NCBI RefSeq assembly: GCF_030409055.1
Contig: NZ_CP116619.1
Span: forward strand, 2,891,628-2,955,627
From: Trichocoleus desertorum NBK24
GTDB lineage: Bacteria; Cyanobacteriota; Cyanobacteriia; FACHB-46
Length of the DNA stretch: 64,000 nucleotides
Direction of reading: 5' to 3'
The notes under the pieces are model-generated. The model did not search any database, was not told the DNA's origin, and saw only the letters and a list, made by a program, of their open reading frames with translations. The position numbers and the translations under genes are program-made. Numbering within the stretch: the first letter of the stretch is position 1; every line of letters begins with the position of its first letter. This document shows, piece by piece, positions 17,103 to 52,937 of the stretch.

Positions 17103-18740
<1,638 letters not shown>

Positions 18741-18762
18741 TCGCTAGTCGCTAATTAATCTC

Positions 18763-18796
18763 AACCCTCATCTCTTCGGAGGTGGGGGTTTTTTAT
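18763..18796 (+). terminator. Terminator of groES-groEL with UUCG tetraloop
   Basis: AACCCTCATCTC (18763-18774), loop TTCG, then GAGGTGGGGGTT (18779-18790) form a 12-bp stem with two G-U pairs. The T-run continues to about 18794. It is a classic intrinsic terminator 22 bases after the groEL stop. Confidence 0.92.
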
Positions 18797-18899
18797 AACT
18801 TTTCTCTTTTTTTCAGGAGTATCTCAAGCATTAAAGAAAAATTAATTGAGAGTTTGGGAATTGTATCGATAAGCCAAATTCTTTACTTTGGGGTATGTA

Positions 18900-20696
18900 A
18901 TGGCTCAAATGATTCCTAATCGGTTGCTTCCCAGTACTACAAGTTTTGCTGAGAAGCGTTTGTATAAAGCGTTTCAGGAGCAGCTATCAGATGAATTTAT
19001 AGTATTTCATAGTAGATGGTGGCAAGTTATAGATCCTCGAAAAGGTGCTCAAGATGGCGAGGTAGATTTCATTATTGCTCATCCAAGCTTGGGAATTCTC
19101 ATTTTAGATGTGAAGGGTGGTCAAATTAGCTATAACGCAAAATCTGAGGAATGGTATCAAAATAGCAATCGCATGAAGGAAAGCCCATTTCAACAGGCTA
19201 CTCGGAATAAGTATAGCCTTCTGAGTTTCCTCAAGGAACGGCCTTACTTTTGCAGAAGATTTATTAACATAGGGCATTCAGTAGGCTTTCCAGATGTTGA
19301 TGTTATGCAGGCACGACTGCGGCTAGATTCTCCTCGCCAGATTGTCCTTGATAGGAGTGATGTAAGAGATCTGAAAAACTGGATCAATACGGCCTTTTAT
19401 CACTATCAAAATAGCTCTAGAATGGATGAAATTGGTTTTCAAGGGATAGAAGAGATTAAATCGCTTCTGGCTCAATCTTGGGAACTAAGGCCACTACTGA
19501 AAATAGATATTGAAGAAGAAAAGGAAGCGATTATTCGCTTAACTGAACAGCAATATGTGCTACTTGATTTTTTGGGACAGCATCGACGCGCAGCAATTAA
19601 GGGTTGTGCTGGCTCTGGCAAAACACTTCTGGCTGTTGAGAAAGCAAAACGTCTAAGTCAACAAGGCTTCCGAGTTTTACTAACCTGCTACAACAAAAAC
19701 TTGGGACAATTCTTAGCTCAAAGCTTATCTCAGGAAAATATTACTATTAGCCATTTTCATGGCCTATACTCTATGACTGACTCAAGTTCAGGCAATCAAT
19801 CTTATGACGGTTATTCAAAAACTGAAGAATTTTTTAAGGAAACTTATCCTAACCTTTTAGTCCAAAAAGCTAATAGTCAAGGATTAGAGTTTGATGCCGT
19901 AATTGTTGATGAAGGTCAAGATTTTCGCGAGAACTGGCTCTTGGCTCTTCAGTGCCTATTAACCGATCCTAATTACGGAATTTTCTATATTTTTTATGAT
20001 GACAGACAAAATATTTATCTTCCAAATTGGAAGCAACCTTTTGATTTCCCTCCTTATCCATTAACAGAAAATTGCCGAAATACACAAAATATTCACAACT
20101 ACCTTAACCAGTTTTATTCTAAGGAAGCCTCAATTAAATCAAAGGGGCCTATAGGTAGACCTGTAGAAATCTTGCAATATAAAACCACTAATGAGTTAAA
20201 AGAAATTCTAAATCAGAAACTAAACTATCTGATTGCCGAAAATTATGTTCCTGCGAAAGATATAGTGGTTTTGACACCACTTAAGACTGAACGTTCTATT
20301 CTTAGCACTATTAGGACGGCTGCAAACTTTTCTTTTAAGTGCCGTAACTATCAGTCAAGAAATCAAAAAAGCGAGAATACAGTATTCTGGACAAGTGTTT
20401 ATCAATTTAAGGGGCTGGAAAGCCCAATTGTTATTCTTGTAGAAATTGAAGATTCTGCATTGAACAGTCAAAATTCTTTGCTTTATGTAGGAGCCTCTCG
20501 TGCTTGTAGTCACCTGATAATCATCAGCAATGAACAGTCGAAGCCTGACAAGCCTGGTGTTTCTAAGCCTAGAGGAGCACCCTGGAAGATATGCCCTAAC
20601 TGTGGTTCAGACTATACTATTGATTGGGGTAAGAATAAAATTGGGAATCCGCAGTTTCAGTGTTGCCATTGCGGAAAGGTTTACGCCAAGGAGTAA
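18900..20696 (+). CDS. NERD nuclease-like domain / UvrD-like helicase / zinc-ribbon protein (598 aa)
   Basis: The N-terminal NERD domain (about residues 15-110) shows GEVDFIIAHPSLGILILDVKGG, with the Asp/Asp-x-Lys pattern of nuclease-related folds. A superfamily 1 helicase core follows: Walker A KGCAGSGKTLLA (about 234-245), Walker B VIVDEGQDF (about 334-342), LTENCRNTQNI, and late motifs VYQFKGLES and LLYVGASRACSHL. The tail is a four-Cys zinc ribbon (CPNCGSDY then CCHCGKVY). The role is probably DNA processing or defence; this is inference. The region is AT-richer than its neighbours and lacks HIP1 sites, suggesting transfer. A TTG at 18888 is a possible but less likely start. Confidence 0.87.
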   Translation: MAQMIPNRLLPSTTSFAEKRLYKAFQEQLSDEFIVFHSRWWQVIDPRKGAQDGEVDFIIAHPSLGILILDVKGGQISYNAKSEEWYQNSNRMKESPFQQATRNKYSLLSFLKERPYFCRRFINIGHSVGFPDVDVMQARLRLDSPRQIVLDRSDVRDLKNWINTAFYHYQNSSRMDEIGFQGIEEIKSLLAQSWELRPLLKIDIEEEKEAIIRLTEQQYVLLDFLGQHRRAAIKGCAGSGKTLLAVEKAKRLSQQGFRVLLTCYNKNLGQFLAQSLSQENITISHFHGLYSMTDSSSGNQSYDGYSKTEEFFKETYPNLLVQKANSQGLEFDAVIVDEGQDFRENWLLALQCLLTDPNYGIFYIFYDDRQNIYLPNWKQPFDFPPYPLTENCRNTQNIHNYLNQFYSKEASIKSKGPIGRPVEILQYKTTNELKEILNQKLNYLIAENYVPAKDIVVLTPLKTERSILSTIRTAANFSFKCRNYQSRNQKSENTVFWTSVYQFKGLESPIVILVEIEDSALNSQNSLLYVGASRACSHLIIISNEQSKPDKPGVSKPRGAPWKICPNCGSDYTIDWGKNKIGNPQFQCCHCGKVYAKE

Positions 20697-20855
20697 GACT
20701 ATAGCTTAATCATCTTCTGATCTTGATAATTGGCTTTTATTCCAGCAATTCTCACTTTGGTGCTTTTGTACTATTTTTCAGGTTGTAAAGGCACTGAGTT
20801 CTGCACAGAGCTAACGAGAGAATGAGTGTTTCAGCTGTTGCCGTTAGATAGAAAT

Positions 20856-20870
20856 TGAGAACGGTTCTCA
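20856..20870. promoter_or_regulatory. 7-1-7 palindrome resembling a Fur-family operator
   Basis: TGAGAAC-G-GTTCTCA is a perfect 7-1-7 inverted repeat, the geometry of Fur/Zur/PerR boxes. A partial third half-site (TGAGAAT) follows at 20874. It lies between two convergent genes, so no promoter is obvious. It may be a relic or coincidental. Confidence 0.35.
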
Positions 20871-20926
20871 TACTGAGAATTGCTGCTTTTATTCGGAGCC
20901 TGAACTGTTGAGCTTCAGATTTTCCT

Positions 20927-21391
20927 CTAATTAGTTTGCGAGGAATCCACTAGTAGACTAAGAGTTTTTGGGTCGCGATCGCCCTCAAAAAACTTATTAA
21001 GCAATTGCTCAAATACTGACCCTTCAGGTGACACGTAGGCAAACAACGTCGCGCAAGATTTTAGCTTCATATCATCAGGAAAACCAAAAATTTCGTGTGC
21101 AGTTCGCTCCTTGCCACTCAAAGCTGCTTCAACGCACTCAATCAGTCGTGGCCCCAGAATCGGATGGCTCAGGTATGCCTTAGCTTCTGCAACACTCTTG
21201 ATGGCGTACCGTTCAGACATCGCACTGAACCCTAGCCCGTCGAACTGCGGGAAGATGTACCACATCCAGTGCGATCGCTTCCGACCGCTTTTGACCTCAG
21301 ACAGCGCCCGTTCGTAATCGCGCTCCTGGGCTTGCACAAAGCGGTTGAGATCATATGGATCGCCTGCGTTCCCAGATTTCGTATCTGCCAT
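20927..21391 (-). CDS. DUF1810 family protein (154 aa)
   Basis: Start at ATG 21391. The protein shows the DUF1810 pattern: DPYDLNRFVQAQERDYERAL, then the strongly conserved SHWMWYIFPQFDGLGFS (about residues 39-55), and HPILGPRLIECVEAAL. Soluble, single domain, full length for the family. The biochemical function of the family is not established. It is convergent with the NERD-helicase gene. Confidence 0.88.
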   Translation of the reverse strand: MADTKSGNAGDPYDLNRFVQAQERDYERALSEVKSGRKRSHWMWYIFPQFDGLGFSAMSERYAIKSVAEAKAYLSHPILGPRLIECVEAALSGKERTAHEIFGFPDDMKLKSCATLFAYVSPEGSVFEQLLNKFFEGDRDPKTLSLLVDSSQTN

Positions 21392-21615
21392 CAATCGTCT
21401 CCTACCGGATGCGAGTCAATTATTACAATCTGTAGCGGATAAGCCTAAATTCCCGCTGAAAGCGATCGCCCTCACAACTACCAATCCCCGAACTGGGTAC
21501 AATCAACGAGAATCCAGTATTGAGGCAGACTTTTCAGTTCTCTCAAGACTGGTATACAAAGTTATAAGCAGTCGTACGTGTTCACTGGCAGAATCAGGGG
21601 AAGTGGGAGGCTCAC

Positions 21616-25898: not shown

Positions 25899-26403
25899 AT
25901 GCACATCCCAGAAATAGACCCAAAGGCTACCATTTCTGAACCAAACCTCTACGACAACGACTTCTACGCATGGACGCAGGAACAAGCTGCTTTACTCCAC
26001 CAGCAACAATGGAGCCAGCTTGACCTGCCAAATTTGATTGAGGAAATCTCATCTTTGGGTAAACAGCAACGCCAAGAACTCCGCAATCGCTTGAGTTTGC
26101 TAATTGGGCATTTACATCAAATGGCAGTACCAACCCGAACATCGTAGTCGTAGCTGGCTAGCCACGATTCGCGTCCAGCGCCTCGACATTTCCGAATTAC
26201 TAGAAGACAACCCCAGCCTCAAGCCTTACCTTAAAGAAGCGTTGCAGAAAGCTTATCTGAAAGGTGTGGAACTGGCAGTGAGTGAAACCGATTTACCCAG
26301 CCGTACTTCCCCCTCAGAAGGCCCCTATGATTTAGCAGAAATTCTAGGCGATCGCTTTTACTCTGGTGAACCCAGTGAGTTAGTTAACGAATTGAAACAA
26401 TAA
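25899..26403 (+). pseudogene. DUF29 family protein, frameshifted
   Basis: The first frame (25899-26147) gives LYDNDFYAWTQEQAALLHQQ, LDLPNLIEEISSLGKQQRQE and LSLLIGHLH, then runs into a stop. The family continues in the +1 frame from about 26116 with IKWQYQPEHRSRSWLATIR and LKEALQKAYLKGVELAV, ending at 26403. One extra base at 26114-26116 explains it: the family reads GHL-(L/I)-KWQYQP, as in the two intact copies at 46205 and 46717. Restored length is ~167 aa, close to the intact copies. Function of DUF29 is unknown. Confidence 0.88.
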
Positions 26404-26569
26404 TTTATCTCTAAGCTAAAAATTTGGGCTTAAAGCAACAAACGTTGTTCTATGGTCAATTAACCTTCCCTAAACAAGGTAAATCATACTTAAGCGTTCG
26501 CTTGTGGCAACGCAGATTGGAGCCTAAAAGCAACTACGCGTTCCTTATAAATCTTAACAGAAGATACCA

Positions 26570-26605
26570 TACATTTGTACTATAAAACTATTAAGTACAA
26601 ATGTA
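26570..26605. promoter_or_regulatory. 12-bp inverted repeat upstream of the 26707 gene
   Basis: TACATTTGTACT (26570-26581) and AGTACAAATGTA (26594-26605) are perfect complements, 12 bases apart. It is AT-rich, with no T-run, so it looks more like an operator or a leader hairpin than a terminator. Confidence 0.45.
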
Positions 26606-26672
26606 CCAAAATGGTTGCTTGTTTCTCTTTTCTTGAAGCTTGGGTAAAACATCCTGCTTGAGTTTTGAGAAA

Positions 26673-26684
26673 TACGTATACGTA
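26673..26684. promoter_or_regulatory. TACGTATACGTA palindrome just before the 26707 gene
   Basis: A perfect 12-base palindrome 22 bases upstream of the chosen start codon, where a dimeric repressor or activator could bind. Protein partner unknown. Confidence 0.35.
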
Positions 26685-26706
26685 ACCAGTAATGGAGAAA
26701 GTTTGT

Positions 26707-27210
26707 ATGTTTCCGACGTTAATAGATTTCTTTCAGCCAATTATGAGTCAAATTGACAAAGCGATAGGCAATCCAACAACAGCAGATATAGAAGAAATTC
26801 GTCAACAGCTTAAGGCAAGTGTGCTGATTGACTTATCTAAACTCCGAAAGCATTACGGCGAGCTTATCAAAGCTTACTATAGGAAAAACCCACCCTTTGG
26901 TAACCGAGAGTACTCTCAAGACGTAGAGGAAAACTTTGCAAAAGATCTTGAGGATTTTATTGAGATAGTAAGCTACTCCGCAGAGGCTGGCGACCCGTCT
27001 ATCTTGGATGAGTGTGTAGTTGGCTACCTTAATCAGAACCCCAAACTCTTATCTAAAAGCTTGCCTGCATATGTAGAGAGATTTAATCGAATAACCACGG
27101 ATTGGGAGGGCTTCATGAGCAAAATAGAAGCACAAGGTCAACCGAGGTGGCCGGATGAGACAAAGCCATACTGGGCCTATTTGGTCGGTAAATTTTCTTC
27201 CAAGCCCTAA
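26707..27210 (+). CDS. Conserved hypothetical protein (167 aa)
   Basis: ATG 26707 is chosen because GGAGAA (26694-26699) sits seven bases upstream; the alternative ATG 26692 overlaps that ribosome site. The protein is soluble and mostly helical. It opens MFPTLIDFFQPIMSQIDKAI and contains SVLIDLSKLRKHYGELIKAY, NFAKDLEDFIEIVSYSAEAG and LLSKSLPAYVERFNRIT. No family was recognised and there are no catalytic motifs. It lies in a HIP1-free stretch next to an IS630-type element inserted six bases after its stop, and has two palindromes upstream. It may be a regulatory or structural accessory protein. Confidence 0.75.
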   Translation: MFPTLIDFFQPIMSQIDKAIGNPTTADIEEIRQQLKASVLIDLSKLRKHYGELIKAYYRKNPPFGNREYSQDVEENFAKDLEDFIEIVSYSAEAGDPSILDECVVGYLNQNPKLLSKSLPAYVERFNRITTDWEGFMSKIEAQGQPRWPDETKPYWAYLVGKFSSKP

Positions 27211-27216
27211 GTACTA

Positions 27217-28342
27217 TAGCGATCCTAAATAATTCATGAAAAAGCATAAAGGCGGCATGCTTCCGTGTCACGATTGACCTTTGTCTAGTTAACTAGTGAG
27301 TCGGTCTATGGAAGAACTCGCTGAGTTTATTCGGAGCAATCCTGACTCTCGTGAACTCAAACGCGCCCTGGCCGTGCAGATGGTATCTCAAGGCTATACC
27401 TACTTTCAGATTCGGGATGCTCTGCACGTCTCAGTCGGCTTCATCAGTAAATGGAAGCAAGCTTTTGAAGAGCATGGAGTTCTGGGATTGGCTCTTCAGT
27501 ATCAAGGCTCCACGGGTTACCTCACACCCTCGCAACGCCAAGGGGTGAGGGATTGGCTCCAACAGAGGAACTACTGGAATCTGAGCGAACTCCAGCAGCA
27601 CATTGAGCAGGAGTATGGGGCGGCCTTTGCCTCCAAGCAGAGCTATTACCAGTTGTTTGCAGAAGCGGGCATCAGTTGGAAGAAGACCCAGAAGCGCAAT
27701 CCCAAAGCAGACCCAGAATTGGTAGAGAAAAAAACACGAAATCAGGGCTTGGCTGGAACGACATCGACAGGAGATTGTCCTGGGTCACTTAGTCGTCTTG
27801 TTCCAGGATGAATGTCATCTGCTCTGGGGCGACCTCTGCGGCTATGTGTGGGGCAAAACCAACGAACGCATCGAAGTGCCAATGACTAACGAACGTCAGA
27901 AGCAGACGTACTATGGAGCGCTGAATATCTTGAGCCAAGAGTTTGTTGTGAAAGCTTTTGAGCGAGCGAATTCCGAGGCCACGATTGCCTTCTTGCAACT
28001 GCTCCTGGCTGAGCATCCTCAGTCTCGCATTGCCTTGATTTGGGATGGAGCGAGCTATCACCGTTCTCAGGCGCTCAAGGACTATTTGGCCTCAGTCAAT
28101 CAGGGCTTAGGCGAGTCCGAGTGGAAAATTACCTGCCTTCGCTTCGCTCCCAATGACCCTCGGCAAAACCCAGTGGAGGATGTTTGGTTGCAGGCAAAGC
28201 GGTGGATTCGAGAGTTCTATCACCTGTGTCAATCGTTCTCAACGGTGAAGTGGTTATTTGAGTTCGTCACCCATCGTCAGACCTTTAATTTTTCGAAGGT
28301 CTTTATGTATGGTGCATTTTCATGAATCTCTTAGGATTGCTA
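27217..28342 (+). mobile_element. Complete IS630-type insertion sequence (1,126 bp)
   Basis: Terminal inverted repeats of 26 bp (27217-27242 and 28317-28342) match at 22 positions; the ends read TAGCGATCC and GGATTGCTA. TA dinucleotides flank the element (27215-27216 and 28343-28344), as expected for the IS630/Tc1-mariner target duplication. Between the ends lies a two-frame transposase gene whose stop is inside the right repeat. Confidence 0.93.
27308..28325 (+). CDS. IS630-family transposase, two overlapping frames
   Basis: Frame one (27308 to 27811) carries the DNA-binding region: YTYFQIRDALHVSVGFISKW is a helix-turn-helix, followed by Trp-rich segments. The catalytic part continues in the +1 frame with HEIRAWLERHRQEIVLGH, FQDECHLLWGD (first catalytic Asp), LIWDGASYHRS (second Asp) and RFAPNDPRQNPVEDVW (Glu). 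The switch falls on a run of seven A at 27728-27734. This could be programmed slippage, known for several IS630 members, or an inactivating base change. GTG 27296 is an alternative start. Confidence 0.88.
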
Positions 28343-28349
28343 TATGTTG

Positions 28350-28988
28350 CTAGTTATGGTTAGTAGAGGGTCCAGACAATTCACCAACAAGGATGGATGC
28401 TGCTACGGATTTGGATTTCCGCATATTTGCCGTTTCTCCCATTAAGTGGAGAAAATTGTCATAGCCTTGTTGTCTCTCTTGAACATCTTTAAGTACTGCA
28501 TCTACCGATTCTTTCAACTTATTAACTCTTGCATCAGTTTCTGGATGCACTTGGAGCAACTCGCTCACTTGATTGCTAATTCTGAGTAGCTGAGACTCTA
28601 TTCCTGAAAATGACTGATGTTTATCCTCAACTGCATCAAGCAGCTTTGTTCTTAACTCTTCTAACCTGGTATTTTCACTGTCGAGTTGGGCTTGCTTTCT
28701 TTTTATCCTGAGCTGACGTTCACTGAAAGCATGAACTATAAACAGCATGGATGAAATCCATAATAAAAATATACTTGCCAAGTGAAGTAATTTATCTGGA
28801 TTGGCGGCTAGGGAATAAGTCGAAAATGTAACTGGTATCAAACCTACAACTAAAGCCATACCTACTAATCGCTGTAAAATAGGAAGGTCTTTGATAGCTG
28901 AGGTAAGGCTATTCACCATGTTTGCAAGAGCATCATACCCATTTTGAATAGGAGCGTTGGTCTGAGATTCGGTAGAAGTTTGTGTCAT
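28350..28988 (-). CDS. Membrane protein with coiled coil, unknown function (212 aa)
   Basis: Two hydrophobic segments are visible (about residues 41-60, LVGMALVVGLIPVTF; and 69-88, LASIFLLWISSMLFIVHAF). They are followed by a long charged coiled coil (about 90-190, rich in Glu/Lys/Gln with heptad-like spacing). The C-terminal tail ends close to the right end of the IS630-type element, eight bases away, so the last residues may have been altered by that insertion. It resembles no family I can name; a membrane-anchored scaffold is a possible reading. Confidence 0.65.
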   Translation of the reverse strand: MTQTSTESQTNAPIQNGYDALANMVNSLTSAIKDLPILQRLVGMALVVGLIPVTFSTYSLAANPDKLLHLASIFLLWISSMLFIVHAFSERQLRIKRKQAQLDSENTRLEELRTKLLDAVEDKHQSFSGIESQLLRISNQVSELLQVHPETDARVNKLKESVDAVLKDVQERQQGYDNFLHLMGETANMRKSKSVAASILVGELSGPSTNHN

Positions 28989-29220
28989 AAACTCACCATA
29001 GAGATAGTTTGTTCCTAGAAGTATAAAACAGCCGACTTCCAGAAAGGATTTTATGAAGCTATGCTACTTTTTATTCCAGTGTTCTAATACTTGAGCGACT
29101 AGGGCTTACTTCTATGTAAAGAAGCAGCCTTTTTAAAAAGCAGTCCTTTTAGTGTGATTAAGAATATCGGATAGCCTGCGAGTAGGCTGATTGTCAAACT
29201 CCTGCATTAACTAAACTTCT

Positions 29221-29847
29221 TCATCCCATTGATCGCAAGCACCTTACCAAATTCTGTTTGCCCACAACGTAAACACCCACAATCGGGTTCTGCTCAACTT
29301 CAACCTTGGCTTGGGAAAAAGCCACAACCGGAGTCACAAAGCTTAACTGCTTGAGCTTTTTCATCGCGACGGCTTGCCGCTTAGCTTGGCTCAAGAAATC
29401 CTTTTCAAAAGGGTATTGCGATCGCCCGTACTGCCGATAGAGTTGCTTACCGTCGCTCCGCACCTCGCCGCGATGTGACTTGACATCAATGGTGTAGGCC
29501 CGACCTTGGGGTGATAGGAGAAACACGTCTACATCTCCGACTGAGCGATCGCGAACCCCAAACTCCATTTGCCAACCTTCGCTCTGGAGAGGTGCGAGAA
29601 CTGTGGCGATCGCCTCTTCTCCCGCTGCGCCTTGGTCGGCTCGATTGGCTTTGCCCCACAAATTTTGGGCTTGGAAGTAGCTGAAACCTGCTGGAACTAA
29701 GCAGCTCAAATAGACCCAACCAGGTAGTGAAAGCACGATGGTTGGGAAGAAAAACTGGAGGAGCCACGGTAGCACCCAGGGTAGCAATACCCATAAGCCA
29801 GCGATCGCAAACGCTAACACTGCTTTCGTGCGGCGCTGTCTCGCCAT
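29221..29847 (-). CDS. Membrane-anchored NERD domain protein (208 aa)
   Basis: Two membrane segments (about residues 8-30 and 38-60) are followed by a NERD nuclease-related domain: GAAGEEAIATVLAPL, GDVDVFLLSPQGRAYTIDVKSHRGEV (in part) and QLYRQYGRSQYPFEKDF. The conserved Asp, and the Asp-x-Lys motif in IDVKS, are present. The likely role is nucleic-acid cleavage or processing at the membrane; this is inferred from the domain. GTG 29877 would add ten residues. It is the second NERD protein in the window. Confidence 0.85.
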   Translation of the reverse strand: MARQRRTKAVLAFAIAGLWVLLPWVLPWLLQFFFPTIVLSLPGWVYLSCLVPAGFSYFQAQNLWGKANRADQGAAGEEAIATVLAPLQSEGWQMEFGVRDRSVGDVDVFLLSPQGRAYTIDVKSHRGEVRSDGKQLYRQYGRSQYPFEKDFLSQAKRQAVAMKKLKQLSFVTPVVAFSQAKVEVEQNPIVGVYVVGKQNLVRCLRSMG

Positions 29848-29926
29848 TACCCGCACATTTTGTCCTGCCCGTGGCACTGGTGCTTCTCTAGTTAGTTAGC
29901 TTTGTAAGCAATTCAGACTTTTTACT

Positions 29927-50157: not shown

Positions 50158-50628
50158 TTAATAAGGGCGACCATCTTTGTGTGTTATAGCCCACTTGCCA
50201 TTCGGCAATTGTGTTGCTTTGAGATCATCGTTTGGGTATTCGACTTCATCTCCTTCTGTGCGATCGCTAATCTCAAGGTATGTCACATTCTCTTGAGACC
50301 GATTGACAAGTTGATGGGCTATACCTGAACCTGCCTTGAAACCATAACACTCACCAGGATTTAGAGTGAGTTCCTCTTTTTCGAGAACCAGAGTTGGGGT
50401 TCCTTCCAGTACAAGGATGAATTCATCCTGCTTGGAGTGGCTATGAGCAAGCGCAGAAATTGCGCCTGGTGAAAGGTGAGTTAAATTGATACCAAAGTTA
50501 GTCAGCCCGAAGAACTCACCAAGTTTGCGTTTCAATCGACCTTGAACCAGTGAAGCATACGGTTCTGGATATATAGTCTTGCCCATTGCCGCTGGAATAG
50601 ATTTTGCCGAAATCGGTGATTTCTCCAC
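50158..50628 (-). CDS. Cupin-domain protein (156 aa)
   Basis: GTG start at 50628 right behind AGGAGG (spacing five bases). Single double-stranded beta-helix: the first cupin motif is SALAHSHSKQDEFILVLEGT (about residues 59-78; His, His, Glu metal ligands), and the second is LNPGECYGFKAGSGIAHQLVN (about 88-108; His ligand). Probable metal-binding oxygenase-like or sugar-binding protein; the substrate is unknown. Ends FLEISDRTEGDEVEYP-like (here YLEISDRTEGDEVEYP), common in uncharacterised cupins. Confidence 0.88.
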   Translation of the reverse strand: MEKSPISAKSIPAAMGKTIYPEPYASLVQGRLKRKLGEFFGLTNFGINLTHLSPGAISALAHSHSKQDEFILVLEGTPTLVLEKEELTLNPGECYGFKAGSGIAHQLVNRSQENVTYLEISDRTEGDEVEYPNDDLKATQLPNGKWAITHKDGRPY

Positions 50629-51074
50629 GATATCCTCCTATTCGCCGCATAACGGCAAAACGCAGCGGTGGTAGACAACATTGAAATTCGGCACTATCAG
50701 CTTTCGACCGTTCGCTGCTGTGATGTGTTAGGCGGTGGGTTCCAAATCGGTTCTCCTGGACCAACCGACCCAGGAAATTGCCAACCCATTTGGGTAACAG
50801 TATTGATAACCGCACATATCAGATTGACTGTGTGCTGCTGCACCTGATCAATAGATTGTTGATCTATTGCGGTATCAACAATCTGCTTTTGACGATTCAC
50901 GAAGAATGGAATCGAAGCGCCCTTTGTATCCGGCAACCTCCATGACCCATGACATAGAACATTCCGCATTTGTGATGCGTTTCGCAGATCGCCTAGAAGC
51001 TCATCGAGATTTTCTATTACAGCTACAGCATCCGGATTATCTCTCACTGCCTTTCCATAGGTATCAATCAGATT

Positions 51075-52311
51075 CAGTAGATCGCAAATTCTCTAGGAAA
51101 GGGGTAGGGTCAGGCTAAAAGCATTAGATCAAGCCATGACGACCTACCCATCTTCATTATCTCCTGCTCCCGCTCTGACCGATGAAGGGACACTGGAAGC
51201 TGCCCTTGATTGTCTACTCGAGTCTGTTCCACTGAACATGAAAGGCGGATACACCCCCCAAGACCTATTCGAGATCCTGCTGCGGGCTGCCAGCCGAGGC
51301 GATAGCATCGAACACACGGCTCAACGCTTGCAAGGTACACCCAGTGGTAATGGTATCCGCTATCACTTGGATAAGTTGGATGAGATGGCCACACTGGAGA
51401 GCCAACTCAATGCGGCTCTGCAAAGCCGAATTCCACCCAAGATTTGCAGAAGGCAGCATCGCATTGCCATCGATTTACACTTAATTCCCTACTACGGCAA
51501 CCCAAGTGAGGTGGAGGCTCCCTACATCTACCGCTCTCAAGCTAAAGCTGGAACTACCTCATTCTTCGCCTATGCCACAGTCTATGTTGTCTGTCGTCAC
51601 AAACGTGTGACCCTAGGGATTCATGCAGTGCATCGTCAAGAAACCTTAGTGGCGACCCTGACTTATTTGCTCGCAAGGTTGAGTCCGCTGCGAGTCCGAG
51701 TCAAACGGCTTTACTTGGATCGAGGGTTCTATAGTGTCCCTGTCATCCGTTGGCTGAAGGCATTGCAGATTCCCTTCCTGATGCCTGCGGTGATTCGGGG
51801 CAAAACTGGAGGAACCCGTCAACTGCTAAGGGGACGGCGCAGCTACCAGACACCCTACACCCTCAACAGTCCCCAGTATGGTTCGGTCAGCTGTCAGATG
51901 CGGGTCATTTGTAACTATTACAAAGGGCTCAAGGGCAAGCATGGGATTCAATACACTGTCTATGTGCTGCATCGGGTGAAGGTTGCCCTGCACCAGACCC
52001 ATCGGCATTACAGAGACCGTTTTGGCATTGAAACCAGTTACAGGATCAAGAACCAGTGTCGCATCCGCACCACGAGTAAAAATCCTGTAACCCGCTTTCT
52101 GTTTGTCGCTCTAGCGTTTGTCCTAGTCAATCTTTGGGTGTATTTGCTGTGGTTCTTTATCAGTTGGACACAACGAGGAGGGCGAGTGGTTTACCGAGAA
52201 CTGTTTGCCCTCAAGACAATGCTGGAATTCCTGTCCCAGGCAGTGGAGCGGCATTTTCCAGTCATCACAGCCATCTACTTACCCGCTCTGGAATGAATTT
52301 GCGATCTACTG
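51075..52311 (+). mobile_element. ISH3-like insertion sequence (1,237 bp)
   Basis: Perfect 17-bp terminal inverted repeats (CAGTAGATCGCAAATTC at 51075-51091, and its complement at 52295-52311). Direct 5-bp target duplication AGATT at 51070-51074 and 52312-52316. It carries one intact transposase gene. The perfect ends and duplication indicate a recent insertion. Confidence 0.95.
51136..52296 (+). CDS. ISH3-family-type transposase (386 aa)
   Basis: DDE-type transposase. Likely catalytic residues are Asp in RIAIDLHLIPYYG (about residue 115), Asp in VKRLYLDRGFYSVPVIRWL (about 195) and Glu in YRDRFGIETSYRIKNQCRIR (about 300). The spacing and the YRxRFxIExxYR motif fit the IS4-superfamily ISH3 branch, as does the 5-bp target duplication. 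Intact from ATG 51136 to a stop inside the right end. Confidence 0.9.
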   Translation: MTTYPSSLSPAPALTDEGTLEAALDCLLESVPLNMKGGYTPQDLFEILLRAASRGDSIEHTAQRLQGTPSGNGIRYHLDKLDEMATLESQLNAALQSRIPPKICRRQHRIAIDLHLIPYYGNPSEVEAPYIYRSQAKAGTTSFFAYATVYVVCRHKRVTLGIHAVHRQETLVATLTYLLARLSPLRVRVKRLYLDRGFYSVPVIRWLKALQIPFLMPAVIRGKTGGTRQLLRGRRSYQTPYTLNSPQYGSVSCQMRVICNYYKGLKGKHGIQYTVYVLHRVKVALHQTHRHYRDRFGIETSYRIKNQCRIRTTSKNPVTRFLFVALAFVLVNLWVYLLWFFISWTQRGGRVVYRELFALKTMLEFLSQAVERHFPVITAIYLPALE

Positions 52312-52618
52312 AGATTTCCAAGAGGATCGACGAGAGCACGTTCTAACTTAGGTAACCACTCGGCGTAAGCCTGATTAATCTCGTCCTCTTGGTATGCTCG
52401 CGTTGCTGTGAATGCAAAGATCGCTTTCCCTAATACTTCTTCTAGAAATCCGAATGTGGCAACGGCACGCCCTAGACTTTCCCAAAAGGCAGTCTCATGA
52501 CCGTGGGTAGGGAATTTATCAGGCAAGCCATCCTGATTGACTCGATATCGCGTTGGCTGTTCGTCATTCATATTGTTTGGTTCGTGAGCTGACTGCCCTA
52601 CTATTCATTAGGTGTACT

Positions 52619-52718
52619 TTTTCTGCATAAAATCCCGGATTGGGCAATTAGCTAGACTATTTCCGCCTAATTACACTTTATAAGCATTTAGGTGGAGAGC
52701 TTTTCTGCATAAAATCCC
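52619..52718. repeat. Direct repeat in intergenic gap
   Basis: TTTTCTGCATAAAATCCC occurs at 52619-52636 and again at 52701-52718 (82-base step). Between them, CCGCCTAA pairs with TTAGGTGG. A third related piece (CTAAAATCCC) lies at 52783. Confidence 0.65.
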
Positions 52719-52766
52719 TGAGCAATAGGTTTTGGTAGAAAAGTACAGTAAGCCCTTCATCTTTTT

Positions 52767-52824
52767 AGCTCTTTAAGTCAGCCTAAAATCCCAAAACAGC
52801 TAATTAGGCTGACTTGAAAGAGCT
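52767..52824. terminator. 20-bp hairpin downstream of the AIM24 gene
   Basis: AGCTCTTTAAGTCAGCCTAA (52767-52786) and TTAGGCTGACTT-GAAAGAGCT (52804-52824) pair over about 20 bp with one bulged base. The gap 52572-52937 holds no gene. The hairpin may stop the leftward AIM24 transcript or be part of a small repeat element. Confidence 0.65.
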
Positions 52825-52937
52825 TTTGTAGGGCAACGGCATAAAAAACTGCTAGATCAAGGGCTAAATACTATTCGAGTTATGGCATGTGGCGATCGCT
52901 AACCACACTTACACAAGCGATCGCCCTACTTCTACCA

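What the first reader, a model, noticed from the sequence alone, without database searches (positions are those of the whole stretch)
18800..20930. NERD-helicase-zinc ribbon gene in a HIP1-free island behind groEL
HIP1 octamers are dense elsewhere, yet I see none from about 17960 to 20978; the gene itself is also AT-richer. The domain set NERD plus SF1 helicase plus zinc ribbon suggests DNA-targeting activity, possibly anti-phage. This is a candidate for a recently acquired single-gene defence element.
Basis: partly seen in the sequence, partly recalled or inferred. Interest (0 to 1): 0.6.

Follow-up and report, generated by a model that had tools for sequence, protein, structure and literature searches.

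The report
Lone nuclease-helicase defence gene behind groEL
A cyanobacterium carries, in a gene slot just behind a spare groEL gene where its two nearest sequenced relatives carry other DNA, a foreign-looking single gene for a DNA-cutting motor protein of a kind that elsewhere is part of several anti-virus systems.

Summary
Window 18900-20696 encodes a 598-aa NERD nuclease + SF1 helicase + C-terminal zinc ribbon. It fills a 2.1 kb segment (18794-20908). In the genus relative with the locus intact, homology stops and resumes at those edges, around a different gene; in the other relative it stops at the same right edge. The segment has the lowest GC of the window (38% against 49%). The HIP1 gap is real but weak evidence: a quarter of it lies in groEL, a longer gap exists in the same window, and about 57 such gaps are expected genome-wide. 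The protein belongs to PADLOC's "RTasNERD-Hel" family (427 bits), yet no reverse transcriptase lies in the window. Relatives sit beside DISARM, Tiamat, Druantia/ARMADA-like, BREX or UG34-RT genes in 48 of 73 loci with adequate flanks; a cyanobacterial subclade, this gene included, is solo. The zinc ribbon was found in no other relative examined. The best structural match of NERD plus helicase is the linker-helicase half of human Schlafen 11. Best reading: an acquired, single-gene, Nhi-like nuclease-helicase defence element. Defence is inferred, not shown; "recent" is unproven.

The parts
18794..20908 (.). Variable (acquired) segment between convergent groEL and DUF1810
   Evidence: Homology to G002 ends at 18793 and resumes at 20909; to G001 resumes at 20909; GC 38.1%, no HIP1, no CGATCG
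18900..20696 (+). NERD-SF1 helicase-zinc ribbon gene, 598 aa
   Evidence: PDLC03813 RTasNERD-Hel 427 bits; start chosen by family consensus MA.M.P
18948..19256 (+). NERD domain (PD-(D/E)XK fold), E54-x-D56 ... D70-x-K72 in 598-aa numbering; Pfam range about residues 17-119, fold to about 200
19536..20537 (+). SF1 (UvrD-like) helicase: GCAGSGKT 235, VDEGQDF 336, NCRNT 391, KGLES 504, YVGASRA 529 (residues about 213-546)
20592..20672 (+). Zinc ribbon, C565-x2-C568 ... C588-x2-C591, transposase (IS1/IS1595) type
   Evidence: not seen in the other relatives examined
20743..20885 (.). 143-bp MITE with 17-nt inverted ends and the 9-bp direct repeat CTTTTATTC on both sides; inside the acquired segment
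   Evidence: two more copies in the genome at 92% and 89%
17109..18740 (+). groEL copy (second groESL), native flank; relic left in G002
18763..18790 (+). groEL terminator-like hairpin, conserved in G002 up to the break point
20927..21394 (-). DUF1810 gene, native flank (80% identical DNA in G002)

Best explanation
A single-gene anti-phage (or anti-plasmid) element acquired into a cargo slot between convergent groEL and DUF1810. Shown: foreign composition, exact edges, absence from both genus relatives, family membership, intact nuclease and helicase motifs, solo context. Inferred mechanism: the SF1 motor loads on invading DNA at ends, gaps or replication intermediates and translocates with ATP. 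The fused NERD PD-(D/E)XK nuclease nicks or degrades the strand being fed to it. The C-terminal zinc ribbon, of the type transposases use to bind DNA, supplies or strengthens DNA binding, perhaps standing in for the targeting subunits that relatives find in DISARM, BREX or RT partners. It would work like Nhi, the one-protein nuclease-helicase system.
For: Acquisition. Family: RTasNERD-Hel 427 bits over residues 1-545. Defence context of relatives: 48 of 73 NERD-helicase loci with at least 1.5 kb on both sides have a recurring partner gene within 2 kb. Cluster representatives were labelled DrmB, DrmA, DrmMII, GajB-like UvrD, TmtA, DruE, BrxC, DrmMI/type IIG and RT UG34. Solo members in the same cyanobacterial clade: L086, L111, L113. 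Motifs: NERD E54, D56, K72 in 70, 71, 69 of 73 rows; Walker A K241, D337/E338/Q340 and R393 in 73 of 73. Model pLDDT 89.7. The other fillers of the slot are a Uma2 nuclease (PADLOC PDC-S03) in G002 and a transposase-bearing segment in G001.
Against: No activity data. Most family members with good flanks (48 of 73) have partners, so a solo copy could be an orphan subunit; the other 25 were not searched for rarer partners. This copy is not in a defence island. Its sister clade in the tree is the UG34-RT-associated one (SH-aLRT 95), which allows that a partner RT was lost. The zinc ribbon is modelled with low confidence (pLDDT 57-69) and its link to transposases is weak by score (E=1.7e-4, below cut-off). 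No promoter-like site was found upstream of the gene.
Confidence: 0.55

Rival explanations
1. Orphan subunit: the protein belongs to a multi-gene system (an RT of class UG34, or a DISARM-like complex) and is inactive or repurposed on its own here.
For: The sister clade is UG34-RT associated (3 of 3 rows: L084, L085, L134). Most relatives have partners. The genome has a DRT8-type RT (490 bits, similar 39% GC, HIP1-free) behind its other groEL.
Against: That RT is class DRT8, not UG34. The five other strong DRT8 matches of the 386-genome phylum sample have no NERD-helicase within 1.5 kb. L086, L111 and L113 have no RT gene recognised next to their copies, and the Drt8 profile, which does find UG34 RTs in three control genomes, gives only weak RT matches (under 70 bits) in those three genomes.
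Confidence: 0.22
2. A DNA-repair or recombination helicase of the host, not defence.
For: The SF1 core resembles UvrD, PcrA and HelD.
Against: Absent from both genus relatives and patchy in the phylum: only about 8 of 386 genomes have near full-length matches. Foreign composition. Relatives cluster with defence genes.
Confidence: 0.1
3. Cargo or function of a mobile element (plasmid or transposon maintenance), brought in by a transposon rather than selected as defence.
For: A MITE lies in the segment. L086 has resolvase and TnpB genes upstream. Relatives occur on plasmids (58 records) and viral contigs (7). The ribbon is transposase-like.
Against: No integrase or transposase ORF in the segment. 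The MITE has its own target repeat and sits inside, so it did not bring the gene. Family contexts are defence, not transposition.
Confidence: 0.13

Closest known systems
PADLOC RTasNERD-Hel (PDLC03813), partner of UG34 reverse transcriptase (DRT)
   Same: Same NERD + SF1 order; 427 bits over residues 1-545; sister group in the tree
   Different: No UG34 RT adjacent; extra zinc ribbon; 36-37% identical to the RT-linked copies
Nhi and 'Nhi-like' single-gene nuclease-helicase systems
   Same: One protein with nuclease plus SF1 helicase; PMC10952713 (passages read) lists PF08378 NERD in 'Nhi-like'
   Different: PADLOC Nhi model matches the helicase only (33 bits); zinc ribbon; no activity data
NERD-helicases inside DISARM-type operons (DrmA, DrmB, DrmMII, Vsr)
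   Same: Homologous NERD-helicase, about 30-35% identical
   Different: Here no DrmA, DrmB or methyltransferase gene
TALON (YprA-like helicase with a NERD nuclease; PMC12458937, preprint, abstract and passages read)
   Same: NERD nuclease in a helicase-based defence system
   Different: No YprA, TPR-CSD or TBP gene here
Human Schlafen 11/12/14, linker plus helicase half
   Same: Structure match of model 1-545 to SLFN11 404-899 (Z 30.4, 429 aligned, rmsd 17.9); NERD alone to SLFN12 387-550 (Z 9.2, rmsd 3.8, 138 aligned) and SLFN14 401-564 (Z 8.7, rmsd 3.8, 142 aligned)
   Different: No Slfn core RNase domain here; the rmsd over both domains shows a different hinge; sequence profile reaches only the helicase half

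Membership tests
RTasNERD-Hel family (PDLC03813) | Full-length profile match | tested here: met
   427 bits, E=4e-128, model 1-513 of 519
UG34 DRT system | UG34 reverse transcriptase adjacent | tested here: not met
   7 RVT_1 matches in the genome, none in the window; the only strong DRT-type RT scanned is DRT8, about 630 kb away
PD-(D/E)XK (NERD) nuclease | E-x-D ... (E/D)-x-K motif and fold | tested here: met
   NERD Pfam 49 bits over cut-off 22; E54, D56, D70, K72; fold like Can2/Card1/Cdn1, Z about 7-10; Foldseek alone found nothing at E<=0.001 for this domain
Nhi | Profile match over the whole protein | tested here: not met
   32.9 bits, residues 215-439 only
Nhi-like (Millman 2022) | Match to the published Nhi-like proteins | not tested
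   No such sequence or model was identified here; the name was seen only in PMC10952713
DISARM | DrmA and DrmB genes in the operon | tested here: not met
   The segment holds one gene only
Zinc ribbon | CxxC...CxxC with a three-strand ribbon | tested here: inconclusive
   Cysteines present; strands 572-574, 585-588, 594-596 but pLDDT 57-69; Pfam and NCBIfam scores below cut-off
Defence system | Protects against phage | not testable with these tools
   No experiment

The most novel reading that the evidence does not exclude
NERD-SF1 helicase is one portable effector module that has been plugged into at least five different defence systems (DISARM, Tiamat, Druantia/ARMADA-like, BREX, UG34 RT), shares its two-domain plan with the linker-helicase half of human Schlafens, and in this cyanobacterium has become self-sufficient by gaining a transposase-type zinc ribbon as its own DNA-targeting part.
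Probability: 0.25. Interest if true: 0.7.

Novelty: new variant of a known kind. Interest (0 to 1): 0.45.

Why it matters
If true, it is a minimal one-gene form of a nuclease-helicase that usually works with partners, so it could be tested alone to learn what the module does in DISARM-like, BREX-like and RT systems. The Schlafen resemblance would tie a human antiviral protein's helicase half to a bacterial defence module. The slot behind groEL gives a marked place to look for further cargo.

Tried and rejected
Split-system idea: the DRT8 reverse transcriptase behind the other groEL as partner. Rejected as unsupported: different RT class, and in the phylum sample the five other strong DRT8 matches have no NERD-helicase within 1.5 kb.

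groEL as a functional partner: none of the 97 NERD-helicase loci has groEL on the DNA held.

groESL itself as part of the acquired unit: rejected. G002 keeps a groEL relic with the same 3' flank, and groEL has HIP1 sites and normal GC.

HIP1 gap as proof of acquisition: rejected as sole evidence.

The first genome-contig scan with the single protein found nothing; the alignment scan worked. Rfam found no RNA in 18500-21500. A DNA alignment of MITE copies was badly framed and was replaced. A profile search of NERD alone against PDB sequences gave only chance-like hits. Six of 103 loci gave no usable ORF and were dropped.

Full report
1. The observation. The HIP1-free stretch 17958-20974 is real, but its first 783 bp are groEL. 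A longer one, 26356-29417, lies in the same window and contains an IS630-type transposase pair (HTH and DDE_3 domains; the IS630 name is recalled). The third longest, 50268-52891, contains a DDE_Tnp_1 transposase. So the three longest gaps all hold mobile or acquired DNA. Taken alone, a gap this long is expected by chance in about one of four such windows, and HIP1 occurs 9,179 times in 5.46 Mb. GC is stronger evidence: 38.1% against 48.7 +/- 2.9%, and GC3 0.32 against 0.47-0.58 in seven other genes.

2. The slot. Two genomes of the same genus are held. In G002 the region is syntenic. Homology runs through the 3' end of a groEL relic and its terminator to window 18793, breaks, and resumes at 20909, just past the DUF1810 stop codon. 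In between, G002 has a Uma2-type nuclease gene. In G001 homology stops at the same 20909. Beyond it lie a short unassigned ORF (its Pfam matches are below cut-off) and a transposase fragment, and then the contig ends, so the left edge cannot be seen there. Neither genome has an orthologue of the gene; their best matches are about 32% identical over the helicase only. The gene is therefore an insertion between convergent groEL and DUF1810, or less likely an ancestral gene replaced twice. In G002 most of the neighbouring groESL is missing, leaving the relic.

3. The gene. The start is ATG 18900, giving 598 aa. NERD residues E54, D56, D70, K72 and the SF1 motifs are intact; E54, D56 and K72 are kept in 70, 71 and 69 of 73 aligned relatives, and position 70 is E in 68 rows and D in this protein. 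The AlphaFold model has mean pLDDT 89.7. A C-terminal CxxC-x19-CxxC ribbon follows. Its matches are transposase zinc domains: IS1/IS1595 model NF050000, E=1.7e-4, below cut-off, and mostly IS1595-family transposases on plasmids at E 0.1-1. Of 97 family ORFs from other loci, one (L093) has a loose cysteine match, in an unrelated 338-aa tail; no other has the pattern.

4. The family. PADLOC calls it RTasNERD-Hel, 427 bits. In a phylum sample 72 of 386 genomes have some match, most of them partial; only about eight are near full length. Of 103 loci collected, six gave no ORF and 97 were used. Neighbours within 6.5 kb were clustered by BLAST and one representative per cluster was labelled by PADLOC: DrmB-like 27 loci, DrmA-like 23, GajB-like UvrD 13, DrmMII methylase 12, TmtA 11 (the expansion 'Tiamat' is recalled), DruE/YprA-like 8, BrxC 4, DrmMI/type IIG 4, each of 97. 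The UG34 RT cluster has 3 loci; two of its RTs were scanned directly at 672 and 683 bits. Of 73 loci with at least 1.5 kb on both sides, 48 have a recurring partner within 2 kb and 25 do not. The sample is the best 80 of 433 by similarity plus others, so these are not frequencies in nature. One of the recurring clusters (c19, 3 loci) was not labelled.

5. The tree (95 rows, quick method, SH-aLRT only). The window protein is sister to the UG34-associated clade (95), inside a cyanobacterial clade of seven (97). L086, L111 and L113 in that clade are also without recurring partners. The closest sequence is 48% identical (L111), so no recent donor is visible.

6. Structure. Foldseek and VIA-align rank human SLFN11 first for the whole model: 404-899 against 1-545, Z 30.4, 429 aligned, rmsd 17.9, which points to a different hinge. 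UvrD and Rep match the helicase alone (Z 25-29). NERD modelled alone (pLDDT 94.6) matches CRISPR ancillary nucleases Can2, Card1 and Cdn1 and Schlafen linker domains at Z 7-10. These rows are near-tied, and Foldseek itself gave no match at E<=0.001. By sequence, the family profile aligns to SLFN11 568-670 and 686-924 but not to the linker before that. PMC9482658 (passages read) describes the SLFN11 linker as residues 354-576 and the helicase as 577-901. Shared origin is thus plausible but not shown.

7. Mechanism. See Best explanation. Shown: intact motifs, solo context, acquired segment. Inferred: DNA targeting, the nuclease-motor coupling, the ribbon's role. Nhi as a working analogue rests on PMC12904381 (passages read), which calls it a single-gene nuclease-helicase linked to phage SSB; Nhi membership by profile was tested and not met.

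8. Literature seen. PMC12458937 (abstract, outline and passages), PMC10952713, PMC12904381, PMC8934634 and PMC9482658 (passages). Searches for NERD and helicase with reverse transcriptases and for the name RTasNERD-Hel found no paper in the held library; the UG/Abi classification paper is not held. Prior description outside this library is therefore not excluded.

Noticed in passing
window 20743-20885: 143-bp MITE, 17-nt inverted ends, 9-bp target repeat CTTTTATTC; further copies at G000:C1:3790966-3791108 (target repeat GGAGAACTT) and 2262314-2262455; diverged or partial copies in G001 and G002.
   Followed up: partly
L047 8842-10539 (G000:C1 about 2276900-2278540): A DRT8-class reverse transcriptase gene (490 bits), GC 39%, in a HIP1-free stretch behind the other groEL copy; G002 has a different small gene there.
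   Followed up: partly
L050 8509-8688 (G002): groEL relic: G002 lacks groES and most of groEL of the second groESL copy but keeps its 3' end and terminator.
   Followed up: partly
window 29221-29877: A second NERD protein with an apparent membrane segment (read by eye), vertical in the genus (86% identical in G002).
   Followed up: no
window 27296-28325: IS630-type transposase split over two frames, in the longest HIP1 gap of the window.
   Followed up: no
window 26692-27210: ORF with a weak phycobilisome-protein domain (27 bits, E=4e-6), next to the transposase in the longest HIP1 gap.
   Followed up: no
window 51136-52296: DDE_Tnp_1 transposase, in the third longest HIP1 gap.
   Followed up: no
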